Source of the DNA: Lanius collurio
Taxonomy: Eukaryota > Chordata > Aves > Passeriformes > Laniidae
Reading direction: 5' to 3'
DNA length: 64,000 nt
NCBI GenBank assembly: GCA_020086605.1
Contig: JACBWW010000017.1
Location: forward strand, 22,375,256-22,439,255
Position 1 is the stretch's first letter. The number at the start of each line of letters is the position of its first letter. This document shows positions 1-31,000 of this stretch, in pieces. The position numbers and the translations under genes are program-made. The notes beneath the pieces are model-generated. The model did not search any database and was not told the DNA's origin. It saw only the letters and a program-made list of their open reading frames with translations.

Positions 1-3753
<3,753 letters not shown>

Positions 3754-16741: not shown

Positions 16742-16747
16742 CTGAAG
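16742..16747. repeat. Target-site duplication, left copy
   Basis: The hexamer ctgaag immediately precedes the first TG of the 5' LTR and is repeated immediately after the terminal CA of the 3' LTR (19421-19426). A 6-bp duplication is typical of class II (beta/alpha-like) avian ERVs. Confidence 0.85.
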
Positions 16748-17034
16748 TGTTGAGGTACCTGTCCCCTGAAGTCCCAGGGGGAGGGACCCTGCAGGGTACG
16801 GGTCTGTCCCTGTCCCCATGTCACGTGTGCCCCATACCTGTTCCTGACTGGGTGGTTTTGGGTACCTGGACCCGGGGAAGAGAGCAGGGTCCCATGACTG
16901 GCGTCTGCCTGGGAACTCCAGCCATGCTGGAGGAATAAATCATCTCTGAACATCTATAAAAGATATCGCTTCATCTTTCCTTCCAAGTTCATCGCTGTCT
17001 TACACTTGTTGTAAGGATTCCCCTCATTACAACA
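16748..17034 (+). repeat. 5' LTR
   Basis: A 287-bp direct repeat with the 3' LTR, starting tgttgagg and ending attacaaca (TG...CA). It carries AATAAA at 16934-16939 and TATAAAAG at 16955-16962. Shared landmarks with the other LTR include gggagggaccctgcagggta, catgtcacgtgtgccccata, agagagcagggtcccatgac and gttgtaaggattcccc. Confidence 0.93.
16955..16962 (+). promoter_or_regulatory. LTR TATA box
   Basis: TATAAAAG, about 80 bp before the end of the 5' LTR. The same motif (tataaaaa) is present at the corresponding place in the 3' LTR. A transcript would start near 16985, giving a short R/U5. The AATAAA hexamer lies upstream of the TATA box, in U3. Confidence 0.6.
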
Positions 17035-17036
17035 AA

Positions 17037-17054
17037 TGGTGGAGAATGTGGGCA
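17037..17054 (+). other. Primer-binding site, tRNA-Ala type
   Basis: TGGTGGAGAATGTGGGCA starts two bases after the 5' LTR. Its reverse complement, TGCCCACATTCTCCACCA, matches the 3' end of a vertebrate tRNA-Ala(AGC)-type acceptor stem plus CCA, as I know it. The match continues into the T loop (…ttcgatccc, 17055-17063) with one extra base. Leu, Lys, Pro, Trp and His tRNA ends fit clearly worse. Confidence 0.7.
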
Positions 17055-17158
17055 TTCGATCCCTGAAAATGATTTCTAAAGGTCCGGAGTACACCGACAT
17101 GAATTGTGAGTAATTGAACTTTCTTATCGTCTTGTTTTTGGCTGTACTTTCTGACCAG

Positions 17159-17536
17159 ATGGAGAAATCAGAGGAGTTGTGGCTATCTGAGCCACAGAAA
17201 AGAATGTACTTGGAAGTGAAAGAAATTCTAGCGAAACAAAATGCAAAACTGGACCCAGGACATTTAGAACACTTTTTAAACTGGCTTTTCAAGAATTTCT
17301 TTTATGTCACTCGAGACTTAATTTTTGATGTTGGTTTTCCTGTAACTAGAGGGAACAATTTTTGGAAAGAAATCAATGAGTAGATAATGATCCAGTCAAG
17401 AAGTGGAATGGTAGTAGAATTGATCCTAGCATCTTTTGCCATTGAAGATGCTCTCATAAAGCATATACTCGATCCCAGTAACACAGAGGTGCCTGTGGCT
17501 GAGGTGGCTGCAGTGAAAGGCACCCAGCCCCCCTAA
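17159..17536 (+). pseudogene. gag-like remnant, matrix region
   Basis: The frame starts at an ATG at 17159 just after a ctgaccag stretch and runs 74 codons to a TAG at 17381-17383, then continues in the same frame to a TAA at 17534-17536. The first part is predicted to be helical (…SEPQKRMYLEVKEILAKQNA…, then hydrophobic/aromatic FLNWLFKNFF) and resembles in layout the N-terminal matrix segment of betaretrovirus-like (ERVK) Gag. The family assignment rests on pattern recognition, not a search. The internal stop and a frame change after 17536 make it non-functional as it stands. I see no capsid major homology region and no zinc knuckles downstream. Confidence 0.6.
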
Positions 17537-18050
17537 AAGCACAAGCCATAGAGCAGACCCCATCCCTGTGTCGGAGTGCACTCCTGAGCGACAGCGGGCG
17601 AGAGAGCGATGACGAAGACACCGGATGTGAGAGTGGACTCCTAGGGGTCTCCGAGGTATTCTTACAGTGAATAAAGAAGGACAGCTAGTAGAAATAGCTG
17701 CTGAAAAGCACAAAAAGCAAGCAGCGAGAGCACAGGCGCGAGCAGCAGAGCAAGCAGCGAGGGCGGCAGCAAGAGTGGCGGCAGCAGAGGCGCAACCCGG
17801 TGGTGGCCGCCCAGCGCTGCGTGGCGAGCGACGGTCGGAGCCCGAGCCCCGTGCCAAGAAAGGAAGCGGTGATAGCGGCAGTCGCTATGGCAACCGTGGT
17901 GAGCCACGCCAAGCCGAGCCAGAGCGGTGTGGGGGCAAGAAGGGAACCGTGCTAGCCCAGGGCCACACAGCCAACAGCAGCACGGCCGACAGCAGCACAT
18001 CCGACAGCAACACAGCCGACAGCAGCACAAGCCGACAGCCACACGGCTGA
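17537..18050 (+). pseudogene. gag-like remnant, acidic then Ala/Arg-rich segment
   Basis: Two frames follow one another. An acidic stretch (containing SGRESDDEDTGCESG, about 17569-17668) is followed, in another frame (open 17631-18050), by a helix-forming Ala/Arg/Gln-rich segment (KKQAARAQARAAEQAARAAA) and a basic Gly/Ser stretch, ending in the minisatellite-coded Ser/Thr/Asp repeats. The base composition is strikingly GC-rich compared with the flanks. The frame changes suggest decay of one former gag reading frame. No catalytic or nucleocapsid motif is seen. Confidence 0.5.
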
Positions 18051-18090
18051 CAGCCACACAGCCGACAGCCACACAGCCGACAGCAGCAGC
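17968..18090 (+). repeat. Minisatellite inside the LTR element
   Basis: Imperfect tandem units of about 15 bp of the type gccgacagccacaca / gccgacagcagcaca. On the plus strand it codes for Ser/Thr/Asp/Ala-rich repeats (TADSSTSDSNTADSSTS). Unit boundaries vary between CAGCAGCACA and CAGCCACACA versions. Confidence 0.8.
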
Positions 18091-18421
18091 GGTGGCAGCG
18101 CCGGCGGTACAAAGCTGCGCACACGCAAACGCCTCACAGGGCGCGGCCGTGCAGCCGCACGAACGCCCGGAAAGCGTGGAGCACGTTGTGGGGCTCCAGA
18201 GGAGAAGCGAGCACAGCGCCAAACTGTGGTGCAGAGGGGGCTGAAGGCGGAGCAGCCGGCAGTGGCAGAGTGTAGCATCAGCACGGCCAGACCGGACCCG
18301 TGCGGCCCCAAACACGATCCCGAGGAGTTGAAACCCCATGACAGGAACGTGCTGGCGGCCCTGGCCCCGGCGGTCCCAGCTCCAGCAGCTCCAGTGTGAG
18401 AGCAAGCAAAACTGAAAGTGA

Positions 18422-18907
18422 AAGCAAGAACAAAGCAAGGCGGAAAAGAAAAAAATTATCACAGCTAGGGTTTTTGGAACTGTAAAATGGTATAATGTAC
18501 AGAAAAATTACGGTTTCTTATTGAGAAGATATACAGGAGAAAGTAATTTTGTCCATAAATCTGCTATTGTGAAAAATAACCCCAAAAGTGATGTTCCAAG
18601 CTTAGAAGAAAGAGAAAGGGTGGAGTTTAAAATTGTACAAGGAAGAAAGGGCCCACAAGCAGCATGTGTTACAGGCCCTGGGGGTGTCCCTGTCAAAGGT
18701 AGTAGATATGCTAGACAGTATCCCCATAATCCCTATCCTTTGCCCTATCCCACCTTCCCCTTTTATCCCATGCCCCTTTATCCTCCATATATGCCCAGCC
18801 CAAATTGCCATTTCTGGTTCCCCTCACAAAACCAGCCGTTTCCATTTGCCATGAACTCCTTTGCAATGCCGATGGGGGGGATGAAAAGCAGGGAGGGAAG
18901 AAATTAA
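18422..18907 (+). CDS. Captured Y-box (YBX-family) cold-shock domain ORF
   Basis: A 161-codon frame open from a TGA at 18419 to a TAA at 18905-18907. From about codon 9 it encodes a full ~88-residue cold-shock domain, a nucleic-acid-binding OB fold: FGTVKWYNVQKNYGF (RNP1 region), NFVHKSAIVKNNP (RNP2 region), VEFKIVQG, and VTGPGGVPVKGSRYA, the Y-box family signature. It aligns with vertebrate YBX1/2/3 without indels, with a little over half of the residues identical to YBX1 as I recall it. The aromatic/His RNA contacts (W of KW, F of YGF, F and H of FVH) are kept. The GPGGVPVKGSRYA wording is closest to YBX2, the germ-cell member. The usual basic/acidic YBX tail is replaced by a ~64-residue Pro/Tyr/Phe-rich tail (YPHNPYPLPYPTFPFYPMPL…). 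There is no in-frame ATG before the domain, so it was probably the end of a longer fused frame. A Ser/Lys/Arg-rich segment lies just upstream in another frame, the shift falling near an A-run at 18449-18455. Confidence 0.85.
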   Translation, partial: KQEQSKAEKKKIITARVFGTVKWYNVQKNYGFLLRRYTGESNFVHKSAIVKNNPKSDVPSLEERERVEFKIVQGRKGPQAACVTGPGGVPVKGSRYARQYPHNPYPLPYPTFPFYPMPLYPPYMPSPNCHFWFPSQNQPFPFAMNSFAMPMGGMKSREGRN

Positions 18908-19112
18908 CTGTCATTTTCTAAGATTCCAACACGTACAGAAAGGAAAAAACCCTCTCTTGACTCAGTTTCCATCTGAAGCATGCTCAAGTGCTGTCTCCCT
19001 TTTGATCCTCCAAAGAAAATCTGTTTGGACATTTGGGGATCCAAGAAAGTGCCTTCCTTTCCTTTGAAAATGTTTTGTTGTTTATCCAACTATTTCCAAT
19101 GTTATTTTATTT
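18908..19112 (+). other. Element 3' internal non-coding stretch
   Basis: About 200 bp between the cold-shock ORF and the polypurine tract. I see no domain and no poly(A) tail that would mark a separately inserted processed pseudogene. Confidence 0.5.
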
Positions 19113-19128
19113 AAAAAGAAAGGGTGAA
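19113..19128 (+). other. Polypurine tract
   Basis: The purine-rich sequence aaaaagaaagggtgaa lies directly before the 3' LTR (one t between), in the place where plus-strand synthesis is primed in LTR elements. Confidence 0.7.
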
Positions 19129-19129
19129 T

Positions 19130-19420
19130 TGTGGAGGTGCCTTCCCCTGAAATCCCTGGGGGAGGGACCCTGCAGGGTACGGGTCTGTCTCTGTCCCTGC
19201 TCCCATGTCACGTGTGCCCCATACCTGTTCCTGACTGGTGTGTGTGCCTGGGGCCTGAGAAGAGAGCAGGGTCCCATGACTGGGGAGTTGCCCTGGGAAC
19301 TCCAGCCATGTGGCTGGAGGAATAAAATAATCCCTGAACATCTATAAAAAATATCACTTCACCTTTCCTTCCAAGTTCATCTTTATCTTAGATATGTTGT
19401 AAGGATTCCCCATTACAACA
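19130..19420 (+). repeat. 3' LTR
   Basis: A 291-bp copy of the 5' LTR, starting tgtggagg and ending attacaaca, with the AATAAA and TATAAA motifs kept. By eye 85-90% identical to the 5' LTR, with several small indels. Confidence 0.93.
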
Positions 19421-19426
19421 CTGAAG
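19421..19426. repeat. Target-site duplication, right copy
   Basis: ctgaag, identical to 16742-16747. Confidence 0.85.
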
Positions 19427-19809: not shown

Positions 19810-20054
19810 ACACAGCCTCAGGGTGCACCAGGGGATGTCCAGATTGGACATCTGGAAGAATTTCTTCACTGAAGGGGTAGTCAGGCATTGGAATGGTCTG
19901 CCCAGGAAGGTGGTGGAGTCACCATGCCTGGAGGTGTTCAAAAGACAACAAGACACGGCACTGAGTGCTGTTGTTTAGTTGGCAGGGGAACTGTTTGTTC
20001 CAAGGTTGGACTCAATTGTCGTGGAGGCCGTTTCCAACCTTTATGATTCTATGA
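19810..20054 (+). mobile_element. CR1 LINE 3'-end fragment
   Basis: The sense strand of the CR1 3' end: tggaagaatttcttcactga, agtcaggcattggaatggtc, tgcccaggaaggtggtggag, tcaccatgcctggaggtgtt, then aaggttggactcaattgtc and the end tttatgattctatga. 5'-truncated. Confidence 0.9.
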
Positions 20055-21053: not shown

Positions 21054-22907
<1,854 letters not shown>

Positions 22908-26000: not shown

Positions 26001-27789
26001 TTCTAGTATTTCCAACTTGTATGTCTATATTTGCTTATACTCCAGTCAGTGTTTAAAAAAAAAGTTTCTCTTCCCATATTTAATGATAGTGTCAGACTAT
26101 GAAAGAAAAGTTGTTAAGTGAAATGAAATGTAGTTTAAGGTTAAAGCTGAATTTTCACAAGATATAAAATAGGCCAAATATAATATTCTGTTAAAAATAA
26201 GAAACAAAAAACTTAGAAAGATTATTTCCAGATACAATCACTCAGCTGATTAGCTCTGACTTTTTGAATACTAGTACATCAATTACCACAATTTTCTGCC
26301 AAAACCTCGGAAACCCATTTGAAAACATCCACATATTTTACCCTTTCAGTACAGATTTATTATTTTTTTTATTCAAAAAGATTTTGGGATACCACGTTGA
26401 CTGGAATGGATTTTCCATTTCTAGTGTTCCTTGAATGCAACATACCTGAATTCTGGTTCTGAAGTCTCTAACACTGCACCCAATGCCAGTGCAAATGAGA
26501 GCTAACAGCCATCTCAGAAAGGGTACCCAACCCCACTTGCTGTTTATACCTAAAAAGTATTTTTCCTTCAAAAATATATTTACGTTTAAAAATTTAAATT
26601 ACACTGAAATGTAAAATATATTTAGCAGTATGTAAAGTGTGGAAAAAAATCAATCTCACAATATTTCTGTTGCTATTTTTAGTAATTTGCTTAAAAATCA
26701 TGTACATTATAAAAATACATCTAAACCCGCGCATCATTACAAATGTCACTCCCCCATTTTTCATCTTGAAGCTAAGGAACCCAGATACCTAGCTATAGGG
26801 GTGCTGGTAGTAACTGTATTAATTATAAAGTAAATCCAATTTTCTTATTCCTGCCAAAATGTCACAGGTCGTTTTACATCATGTATGACTCTTGCAGTTG
26901 CATGGTTTCCAAGCAATACTCTCAAGGACAGAATCAGCCTGCTACTCTTTCCTGTATCACTCTTCCCCAAATGGGATTTAAATGACTTGGCACAGAGCCC
27001 AAAAAGGTCCCCTCCAGCTTGCAAAGCCCTATGAAAAATCCAGCCAGACTGTGAAGAGGACAAAGGTAGGTGCTGCTGGCTGTTTATCACCAGCCTGCTT
27101 TCCTCCCTTCCTTCCTTCCTCAAGGCCAAAGCAGCAGCAGCAAAGTTCTGCCCTAGTTCCCCTCTTTTCTTTCCCCCAGCAGTAGCCAGGAAAAGCCAAG
27201 AGATTTAACTGCACAGAAGAAAGAGAAGAGAAAGAGCTGCACTAATAACCAGCCTGCAAGAGAAACCTACCTATATGGTGCTAGGATGAGACAACCCATT
27301 TTATCTGATCCATATCCCTACATGTAATGGTATAGGATGCTTGGGGGAAAAAAAAACAACCTACCAACTCATTTTCACTACGTTGTTTAAAAATAGTATC
27401 CCCAGACAAAATACAGAAATTATTTTTGGTTCCTTGGCCCCTTAACAGAGACAGCAGTTAAGATTAAATCAGTAAAACTCACTCAAACATACTTTCTGTT
27501 TCAGGGAAAAAAATTATCTCAAAGGTCTACAGCACATTTCAAGAAGCTCAATGAAAACATTCAAGACAGTAATCTTGACTTTAGGTTTTGGGTTCTTCAT
27601 TCTTAAACACCGAATGAGAAGGGATGGAAAAACAAATAAGTTACTCACATGTTTTTGCCATACTCTGCTTTAATTTCAGGGCTTTTGCAGCCATGGCATA
27701 ATACAAACTTTCACCACACATCTACATTCCAGAAAACCACACTCTAAACCCTAACCCCAACATACTGACAGAACAAGATGAGTTCTCAC
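23004..27789 (-). other. ICA1: ICA1 intron, before the candidate cassette exon
   Basis: Starts with gtgaga at 27789. It contains a (TA)n(CA)n microsatellite at 25528-25552. Reading through the donor from the upstream exon adds 19 codons before a stop, so intron retention would truncate the protein. No further exon is supported. Confidence 0.6.
25528..25552. repeat. (TA)n(CA)n microsatellite
   Basis: A compound dinucleotide run: tatatatata followed by cacacacacacaca. Confidence 0.9.
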
Positions 27790-28065
27790 CATGTAAGGAT
27801 GACTGCAAGTCATTCATGTTTTGGTCTAGCAGCTGTGAGGGCAAGTAGCCTGATGGTGCTGATACTGCAGACGAGGAAGTGTTCTCCCCATCTCTAGTAG
27901 AAGAGTTCATGGTGAGATCAGCAGCCTGTCCAAAAACAGCTGTCCACTCCTTGCTGAATTCCCCCTCATCCAGAGAGGAAGCGTTGAGGATCTCATTCAG
28001 TAATACCATGTCATCCTTATCACCAGGTTCTGGCTCCAAGGATCTCACAAACTTTTCCTTTGAAG
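27790..28065 (-). CDS. ICA1: ICA1 coding exon, ICA69 C-terminal domain
   Basis: The 276-nt exon begins after the acceptor ctgagacag and ends CATG|gtgaga. It encodes ASKEKFVRSLEPEPGDKDDM, then VLLNEILNASSLDEGEFSKE, WTAVFGQA, a Ser/Thr/Asn-rich linker, and GYLPSQLLDQNMNDLQSSLH. The conserved NASSLEEGEFSKEW and LPSQLLDQNM blocks are diagnostic of the ICA69 C-terminal domain. The linker between them is variable compared with mammals. An alternative acceptor 4 nt upstream (ctgag|ACAG) would break the frame, so 28065 is chosen. Confidence 0.95.
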
Positions 28066-31000
28066 CTGTCTCAGAACAAGAGAGTCAAGATAAATAATTT
28101 TTTTTTACACAAAGTAAAGAAGGAACATTTTAAAAATAGCCAATCTAGATTTTGTGTTTTAAGTGAGATGGAATATTTCTGCATGAATATTTATTTTCTC
28201 TTTTAGACTCAATTCTCCTGGACATCTAGGTTTATACCTTATGCAACAAATAATTCCTTGATTATCTTAGATAACCTCACTGCTGTTAAGACTCAGTTCT
28301 CATTAAAAATAAAACTACAAGTATGCTTAAAAATCTATTGAATACACCAAAATCATTACATAGTCTAATATTTAGATCATTGGAAAAGACTACTTTTATG
28401 TTGCTTCTTGAAACATTATGAAACTCAAAAAAATCAGATTAGTATAAACTGAAAAAAAGTAAGACTTGGGGATTATTCTACAATCTTGTGAGAACTTAAG
28501 ATCACCCTTCTGACCTTCTGACCAATGCCTGAATTATTGGGGTATTTCCCCATCACAAAAGGTTAGTCTATCACATAGAGTTAGAATTCTACACTGATTG
28601 ATTCTGTAGTATTTTTTTTCTTCTCATAAGCTGCTGAAGAAATAATTGGGGCTCACTTTCATTCAGATTCCCTGTGCTAGTTTTTCCAGCAGCAGAACTG
28701 CAGCTGAAGAAGCTCTTAGATCACTTGAACCACAACTCCTTAAAAACACTTTTTTCCTATTTCAGAAATGTTAAATAGTCATATAAAATACATGAAACTG
28801 GTAACCAGGATCATAATCCTTTCCAAATATTTTGAGAGTTAAAGAACTATCAAGGACCCCCAAGTGTTATTTTACTTGGAAACATTTGGAGCTCCACTGT
28901 GGAAGTCTGCAGATCACAAAAATGGTGGTTAACAAGGCTGATAATGTTACATTACTGAAATCCACATCAGTTTATCTTGATTATGATTGTTTCAAAACTT
29001 GTGGTAAGGCACAGAAGCAACTTCAGTTTTCCAAAGTTTGGGTAGATCAGCCAAACTCTCCAATTTGCATTCAACTTACAAAGATACTTTTAACCCTTTT
29101 GGGGTGGGATAAAAGATTGACAGTAGCAAAGTGGTTGCAACAGGCCATTTTACTGAAACTCAACAGCCTCCTCAAGAAAGTTTCCTGGTAATAGCTGTAA
29201 TAATTTATAATGAAATGGTTGAAGTTGAGTCAGACGAGGAAAAAAAGCACAAAACTGTTTTTTAAAATTGGCTCATGCGTCAGCACACACACCTACGTAC
29301 CAAGAAACAAATAAACACACAATAAAATGATTTTATTCATTACTGAAGTCAGCTGTGAGATTCAGCTCCTTTCTAACTCACATTTTGATATATCTCTGTA
29401 CTCCCTGACAGGGCCTAAAAATTAGAAATAGAAACATTAAAGACATGTCAATTTTCCTGATGTTCCCACTAGACTATAACTAAAATATCACAGAAAACAG
29501 TATGTTCTTACAAATTTTCAGGCTGTTTTCTCATCTTCAGATAAAGAGCAAAGATTACTAACATTGTCCAAGCACCTTCAATTCCCCCAAGTTACTCAGC
29601 AGTTAAGACAGAGGGGTAAATCCTCCCATAGGGGAAACACATCTGCTATTTCAAAGGCTCTTCAGAACTCTATGGAGCATCACCATCTCAAAGCTGTTTT
29701 CAGGAAACCCCTTCATGAACTTGCAGGGGGAGATGCAAAGAGAGTGGTATTTGTAGCAGATCTGCTACGACACAGCACCAACACCACATGTAACCACAAG
29801 TGCCCTCAACAGAACAAAGGTAGCAGCACAGCTCAGAGCAAAGCTCTGCTTTTTCTGGGGAATCATTGCAGAAGCTCCATCTTGACTTCAGGAGCAAGTA
29901 CAAAATAAAGCTTTACGTGTGAAGAGCAGTCAGGTCTTGCTGGAGGGTGTACGACCACCAGAAATCTGAGGAGTGACACATTTTGTGGCTCATCGATCTT
30001 CCTGATCTTCCTGTGGGCAATGTGCACCCGTGGCAGGGCAGGATAGGGTGTGTTCAGGCTCAGGCTGCCCTGAGTAAGCAGCAGCAGCAAATTTCACTCT
30101 TGTTTGCAATAAAGGTTATCTAGAAACCAGTCTTGCTTACCGAGATATTACTCATGTGGTATCTCTGTTAGATTACTAGAATGATATGGACTTTCTCACT
30201 TTACCCGTAAATCTTCTATTACTTCTTTTCCTGTTTCTGTTTTCAATGCCCATTTTCAGTCAAAATCCTTTTTTCTGTCTGCACATGCTGCCCCAACCTT
30301 ATAGACGCCCATGAAAAAAAATCCAAACCTTCCAATAAAACACTGAAAGAACAATGTGACTATATTCTTTTTGTAGCTGTTTGAACAAGCCTCTAGCAAT
30401 GCTCATAATTCCTTTGTAAACATACCTTATTTTGCTGCTATTAAAAAAAAGGAGAAGAGAAACTAAAAATATTTACAACAGTACATGATCGGCAACACAT
30501 GATAAAGACTTCCTTCTGAAACACACATGAAAGTGTACCTCTCACTGTACTGCTTCACTTAAAACAATACAATATTCATTAGCCTAAAGTTAGCTAGTGT
30601 GTAAAATTAGGGCAAATGGCTGATATTTTAATAGTGCCATAGCCATCCTTAGATGATGCAGACACCCCCCAGCAGTTTTTGTATCAATTTAACTGTTTAG
30701 GTAAAGGAAAAAATTGTTCTGAGTGACACAGCTAAGGTTGTATGAGCAATAATTGTATGCATTCTCTGTATCTCCACTATGAAGGCCCAACAAGGAATGG
30801 AACTGAGCAAGAAGAAAACCAGAAGAAAAAAAATGCCACTATCAGGCATGCACCAACCTTTTTTATTAACCACAAAAAAGAAGTCATTATCCACAGATTA
30901 GGGCTGCTTCAGCAGACAGCTGAGAAACCTCCCCGGTGCCTGCCCTCATGGGTGACTCCCCACATGGATAATAAGCCACCAGTGCAAGATACTGCCTGTG

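What the first reader, a model, noticed from the sequence alone, without database searches (positions are those of the whole stretch)
18422..18907. An endogenous LTR element carries a host-derived Y-box cold-shock domain
Between a broken gag-like region and the 3' LTR lies an intron-free frame encoding a full ~88-residue cold-shock domain, gap-free against vertebrate YBX proteins, with the RNP1/RNP2 aromatic and His residues kept and the family signature VTGPGGVPVKGSRYA. YBX genes split this domain over several exons, so the copy came from spliced mRNA. Retroviral capture of a packaging or translation-control RNA-binding protein is unusual. A Y-box protein could plausibly act on the element's own RNA, for example in packaging, stability or germline translational masking. 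The closest wording is YBX2, the germ-cell Y-box protein, which fits germline capture. The sequence shows the domain and its place between LTRs; the captured-gene interpretation and any function are inference.
Basis: partly seen in the sequence, partly recalled or inferred. Interest (0 to 1): 0.93.

Follow-up and report, generated by a model that had tools for sequence, protein, structure and literature searches.

The report
LTR element carrying Y-box RNA-binding domain
An old virus-like mobile element, apparently in a bird genome, carries an uninterrupted copy of the RNA-binding domain of a host Y-box protein, which looks like a host gene taken up and kept by the element, although its host genome could not be searched for a second copy.

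Summary
Window 18422-18907 is one open frame (161 aa) with a complete cold-shock domain, aligned without gaps to Y-box proteins over 89 residues. It lies inside a 2.7-kb LTR element: LTRs 16748-17034 and 19130-19420, TG..CA ends, a 6-bp CTGAAG duplication, LTR distance 0.104, between a FAM117-type (GLCCI1-like) exon and ICA1 exons. Neutral decay is a poor account: at the divergence matching 58% identity, no indel and no stop had simulated probability of about 0.005 or less.

Corrections: YBX1 and YBX2 tie at 46 of 79, so 'YBX2' is unproven. 'Gag-like' found no support. The frame has no ATG before the domain. The tail is not Y-box-like. Motif counts do not favour binding to the element's own RNA.

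Best reading: a host Y-box mRNA captured by a non-autonomous LTR element, whose product handled element RNA. Copy number and expression are untested: the genome search did not complete.

The parts
16742..16747 (.). left target-site duplication CTGAAG
   Evidence: identical to 19421-19426
16748..17034 (+). 5' LTR, 287 bp, TG..CA, with AATAAA and TATAAAA
   Evidence: 84% identical to the 3' LTR; K2P 0.104 over 279 sites, 7 gap events; boxes read
17037..17054 (+). primer-binding-site-like stretch TGGTGGAGAATGTGGGCA, 2 bases after the LTR
   Evidence: sequence and place; match to the 3' end of a tRNA-Ala is recalled, not tested
17106..17111 (+). splice-donor-like GTGAGT, the only GTRAGT found in 16950-19130
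   Evidence: pattern scan; no function shown
   Evidence: no family or significant fold match
17554..18399 (+). G+C-rich (65%) stretch with CpG o/e 0.80, Ala/Lys/Arg-rich and with 15-bp repeats (ADS-type), open in pieces in different frames
   Evidence: the only CpG-island-like stretch of the window by the criteria is 17351-18580
18422..18907 (+). open frame, 161 aa, cold-shock domain plus Pro/Tyr/Phe/Met-rich tail; first Met is residue 117
18446..18712 (+). Y-box-type cold-shock domain, 89 codons, no gap against YBX proteins
   Evidence: five-strand model matching YBX2/YBX1 domains in Foldseek
18668..18712 (+). signature VTGPGGVPVKGSRYA, 15/15 identical to human YBX2
18713..18904 (+). tail of 64 residues, 16 Pro, 7 Phe, 6 Tyr, 6 Met; 4 K/R and 1 E
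   Evidence: low model confidence
19113..19126 (+). polypurine-tract-like AAAAAGAAAGGGTG just before the 3' LTR
19130..19420 (+). 3' LTR, 291 bp
19421..19426 (.). right target-site duplication CTGAAG

Best explanation
A non-autonomous LTR element took up a spliced host Y-box mRNA and kept its cold-shock domain as a gene of its own. Shown: intact domain, position between the LTRs of one insertion, no clear retrocopy marks of its own, no zinc-knuckle, protease or reverse-transcriptase motif found. Inferred: the product was a small basic RNA-binding protein that bound element RNA as a chaperone, stabilising it or helping it into particles supplied by a related virus, much as cellular YB-1 is described to support several retroviruses. 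In this copy the part upstream of the domain is interrupted and the frame lacks its own start codon, so the protein is probably no longer made, or only as part of a longer or spliced product.
For: Domain and gap-free alignment; single insertion with a 6-bp duplication; none of the 9 direct-repeat families listed brackets the frame; no stop and no indel at a divergence where neutral drift rarely leaves that (0.005, 0 of 4000 and 0 of 4000 at d=0.25 for three indel rates; since-insertion test 0.005 to 0.044); conservation concentrated in the signature, with Trp, His and Tyr kept; strongly basic frame (24 K/R, 9 D/E); no CCHC, D[TS]GA or YxDD motif in three + frames of 17035-19129. Precedent: crocodilian ERVs captured KIT-ligand and nectin3 mRNA (PMC4299795, passages and sections 9 and 15). 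YB-1 is described as supporting MLV and MMTV production in an RNA-dependent manner, and HIV production through RNA stabilisation (PMC6040738, passages).
Against: No second copy was seen: none in the window, none in viral contigs, and the host genome could not be searched. No ATG in this frame before the domain without an intervening stop. YBX-preferred motifs (recalled) are not raised in the element RNA 16975-19330: CATC 6 against 6.2, CACC 4 against 10.1, both together 10 against 16.6 +/- 3.7 expected. An A-rich patch (12 of 20) starts at 18931, 24 nt after the stop, and might be an eroded poly(A). The tail lacks the Y-box basic/acidic make-up. The frame was noticed because it is open, so the since-insertion probabilities are biased; the long-run test assumes a parent close to known YBX, and a diverged host paralogue as parent would weaken it.
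Confidence: 0.55

Rival explanations
1. A processed YBX retrocopy landed by chance inside an ordinary LTR element; the element played no part and the frame has no function.
For: Retrocopies of YBX genes are common in vertebrates (recalled). No further copy in the window. The upstream stretch of the element is interrupted. A 12-of-20 A-rich patch lies at 18931.
Against: No repeat pair of 10 nt or more brackets the frame (a shorter or eroded one is not excluded); longest A run after the frame is 6, and the A-rich patch is only 24 nt after the stop, close for a Y-box mRNA; 58% identity without indel or stop is not what a neutral retrocopy shows. Whether a YBX 3' UTR is present was not tested.
Confidence: 0.17
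2. The domain was captured by the element, but this locus was later kept by the host as a gene (exaptation), which is why the frame is open while the stretches before it are interrupted.
For: Probability that the frame stays open since insertion under neutrality is 0.005 with the LTR indel rate, about 0.04 with half that rate or with indels at 1/8 of substitutions; the only CpG-island-like stretch found in the 64-kb window overlaps the start of the frame, o/e up to 0.85 against a window median of 0.11.
Against: No ATG before the domain; the frame was picked for being open; the CpG-rich stretch may be a captured CpG-rich exon that has not yet decayed; no expression data or orthologues.
Confidence: 0.13
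3. The domain was captured and carried as a passenger without a role for the element; its open frame is luck.
For: No start codon; no motif enrichment.
Against: Selection-like pattern over the longer history.
Confidence: 0.15

Closest known systems
Host-gene-capturing ERVs of crocodilians (CrocERV29 with KIT-ligand, CrocERV31 with nectin3; PMC4299795)
   Same: Captured host mRNA as an open frame inside old, otherwise broken ERVs; in CrocERV31 at the cost of the env gene
   Different: Those captured a cytokine and a membrane adhesion protein, in lineages with several copies; here an RNA-binding domain in a short element without recognisable pol, one copy known
Vertebrate Y-box proteins (YBX1, YBX2, YBX3)
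   Same: Cold-shock domain, gap-free, with the family signature
   Different: 46/79 identical, where human YBX2 and zebrafish ybx1 are 74/79 identical to each other; tail Pro/Tyr/Phe/Met-rich instead of basic/acidic; no start codon
Retroviral use of cellular YB-1 (MLV, MMTV, HIV; passages of PMC6040738)
   Same: A Y-box protein acting on retroviral RNA is a described host-factor role
   Different: There the host supplies the protein; here the element would encode it (inferred)

Membership tests
LTR retrotransposon / endogenous retrovirus | Paired LTRs with TG..CA ends and target-site duplication | tested here: met
LTR retrotransposon / endogenous retrovirus | Primer-binding site and polypurine tract | tested here: inconclusive
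   both look present by place and sequence; the tRNA match is recalled only
LTR retrotransposon / endogenous retrovirus | gag and pol genes | tested here: inconclusive
   upstream stretch unmatched in Pfam, NCBIfam and PDB sequences, no significant fold match; no CCHC, D[TS]GA or YxDD motif, so non-autonomous
Class II (alpha/beta-like) ERV | 6-bp target duplication and pol phylogeny | tested here: inconclusive
   6-bp duplication seen; that this length points to class II is recalled; no pol to place
Y-box protein | Cold-shock domain of Y-box type with C-terminal signature | tested here: met
Y-box protein | Ala/Pro-rich N-terminal domain | tested here: inconclusive
   an Ala/Pro-rich run lies just upstream but in another frame
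Y-box protein | C-terminal domain of alternating basic and acidic clusters (definition recalled) | tested here: not met
   64-residue tail has 4 K/R and 1 E; so it is Y-box-derived, not filed as a whole Y-box protein
Processed retrocopy | Own poly(A) tail and target duplication | tested here: inconclusive
   no bracketing repeat of 10 nt or more; longest A run 6, one 12-of-20 A-rich patch at 18931; eroded marks not excluded
Host gene captured by an ERV lineage | Several element copies sharing the captured gene | not testable with these tools
   The genome search did not complete; no copy in viral contigs

The most novel reading that the evidence does not exclude
The cold-shock domain was the RNA-binding end of a chimeric Gag-like protein: helical N-terminal part, basic Ala/Lys/Arg and ADS-repeat middle, then the host Y-box domain in the place where retroviruses carry the zinc-knuckle nucleocapsid. 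The frame has no start codon of its own and no zinc-knuckle motif was found in the element, as this reading expects. It would be a mobile element that swapped its genome-packaging domain for a host mRNA-packaging domain.
Probability: 0.12. Interest if true: 0.9.

Novelty: new variant of a known kind. Interest (0 to 1): 0.62.

Why it matters
Capture of host genes by retroviruses and ERVs is known for a kinase, cyclins, a cytokine and an adhesion protein (PMC4299795, section 15). Capture of a general mRNA-packaging protein would be a different sort of gain, since it could act directly on the element's RNA. It would make testable whether retroelements improve packaging or germline persistence by encoding their own mRNP protein.

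Tried and rejected

Literature searches for a Y-box or cold-shock gene in an ERV: answered; by titles and abstract starts, none of the papers listed reports one (1 of 1, 20 of 95, 2 of 2 and 15 of 105 listed). Later searches failed, so absence from print is weakly tested.

Full report
Observation. The frame 18422-18907 is real, and no further copy of the pieces of the element was found in the window beyond its two LTRs and internal repeats. The domain scores E=5.2e-17 in Pfam and about 1e-28 against Y-box chains in the PDB, without a gap over 89 residues. Over 79 residues shared with PDB chains, identity is 46/79 to human YBX2 and 46/79 to zebrafish ybx1; those two are 74/79 identical to each other. 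The last 15 residues are identical to YBX2, 15/15, while the rest is 31/64 (Fisher p=1e-4, block chosen after seeing it; longest-run permutation p=0.003). The single Trp, the single His and both Tyr of the YBX2 domain are kept; 3 of 5 Phe, 3 of 7 Asn and 3 of 6 Lys are kept. So much of the aromatic surface is kept and many polar positions are not. Which of these touch RNA in YBX structures is recalled and was not checked, as the paper library stopped answering. The predicted model has five strands, low confidence (mean pLDDT 49.6, three sequences), and its best PDB matches are YBX2 and YBX1 domains.

Setting. The LTRs (287 and 291 bp) have TG..CA ends and a 6-bp CTGAAG duplication; they differ by K2P 0.104 over 279 sites with 7 gap events. 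With bird neutral rates of about 1.9 to 3.3e-9 per site per year (recalled), that is roughly 16 to 27 million years. A primer-site-like stretch follows the 5' LTR and a purine tract precedes the 3' LTR. The element lies between an exon with a FAM117 domain (GLCCI1-like; 3337-3750 +) and two ICA69 C-terminal stretches on the minus strand (27725-28084 and 21057-21296), and ends 1631 bp from the last ICA1 coding stretch. That the first is GLCCI1, that the two genes are vertebrate neighbours, and that the window is avian (CR1-like sequence near 19830-20050) is recalled knowledge.

Inside the element. From 5' to 3': an open stretch of 74 codons from an ATG at 17159; a G+C-rich stretch rich in Ala, Lys, Arg and 15-bp ADS-type repeats, open in pieces in different frames; the cold-shock frame; within it a Pro/Tyr/Phe/Met-rich tail. 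The first stretch has no family or sequence match and no significant fold match; its gag label rests on position only. No CCHC, D[TS]GA or YxDD motif occurs in three + frames. Upstream in the frame of the domain, two stops separate it from the nearest ATG at 18338, and the first Met inside the frame is residue 117. This copy therefore has no simple way to start the protein. An A7 run lies at the start of the domain homology, a natural place for frame loss.

Chance, decay or selection. If the frame had drifted freely since insertion, the chance of no stop and no frameshift is 0.005 with the LTR indel rate, and about 0.04 with half that rate or with indels at 1/8 of substitutions. The frame was noticed because it is open, so these values overstate the case. 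The longer history is stronger: the identity seen needs about 0.25 substitutions per site under neutrality, at which no stop and no indel over 89 codons had probability 0.005, 0 of 4000 and 0 of 4000 for indel/substitution ratios 0.05, 0.1 and 0.15. Both simulations start from the frame itself as a stand-in, and assume a parent close to known YBX.

Capture or chance landing. In 17540-19129, none of the 9 direct-repeat families listed has one copy before the frame and one after it. After the frame the longest A run is 6, with one 12-of-20 A-rich patch at 18931, 24 nt past the stop; an eroded poly(A) is not excluded, though so short a 3' end would be odd for a Y-box mRNA. The Y-box tail is missing. 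This fits recombination of a host mRNA into the element better than a processed copy landing in it, without proving it. The deciding test, further copies with the same junctions, was not possible: 11 of 11 calls to the genome search did not complete, and viral contigs gave none.

Function. YB-1 is described as supporting MLV and MMTV production in an RNA-dependent manner and HIV through RNA stabilisation (PMC6040738, passages), so an element-encoded Y-box domain could act on element RNA. Against a simple self-binding model, CA[TC]C motifs (preference recalled) number 10 against 16.6 +/- 3.7 expected on the transcript strand. The window's only CpG-island-like stretch by the criteria used (17351-18580) overlaps the start of the frame. 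That may reflect a captured CpG-rich first exon or a locus unmethylated in the germ line; these data do not decide.

Known relatives. Crocodilian ERVs captured KIT-ligand and nectin3 mRNA, with open frames in broken proviruses and reported purifying selection (PMC4299795, passages, sections 9 and 15). No Y-box or cold-shock capture appeared among the papers listed in four answered searches. I rate this a new variant of a known kind.

Noticed in passing
17351-18580: Only CpG-island-like stretch found in the 64-kb window (o/e up to 0.85, window median 0.11), inside an element whose LTRs differ by about 10%.
   Followed up: partly
17954-18114: 15-bp tandem repeats encoding ADS(H/S)T-type repeats, running across a frame change.
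   Followed up: no
3337-3750 +, 21057-21296 -, 27725-28084 -: Coding stretches of a FAM117 (GLCCI1-like) gene and of ICA1; the element lies in the interval between these two genes.
   Followed up: partly
18764: YPMPL in the tail fits a YPx(n)L late-domain-type motif (motif recalled), the only one in three frames; likely by chance in a Pro/Tyr-rich tail.
   Followed up: no
17037-17054: Primer-site-like stretch that resembles the 3' end of a tRNA-Ala (recalled), which would be an unusual primer for a retrovirus-like element (recalled).
   Followed up: no
18931-18950: A-rich patch (12 of 20) 24 nt after the stop of the frame; possible but weak sign of an eroded poly(A).
   Followed up: partly
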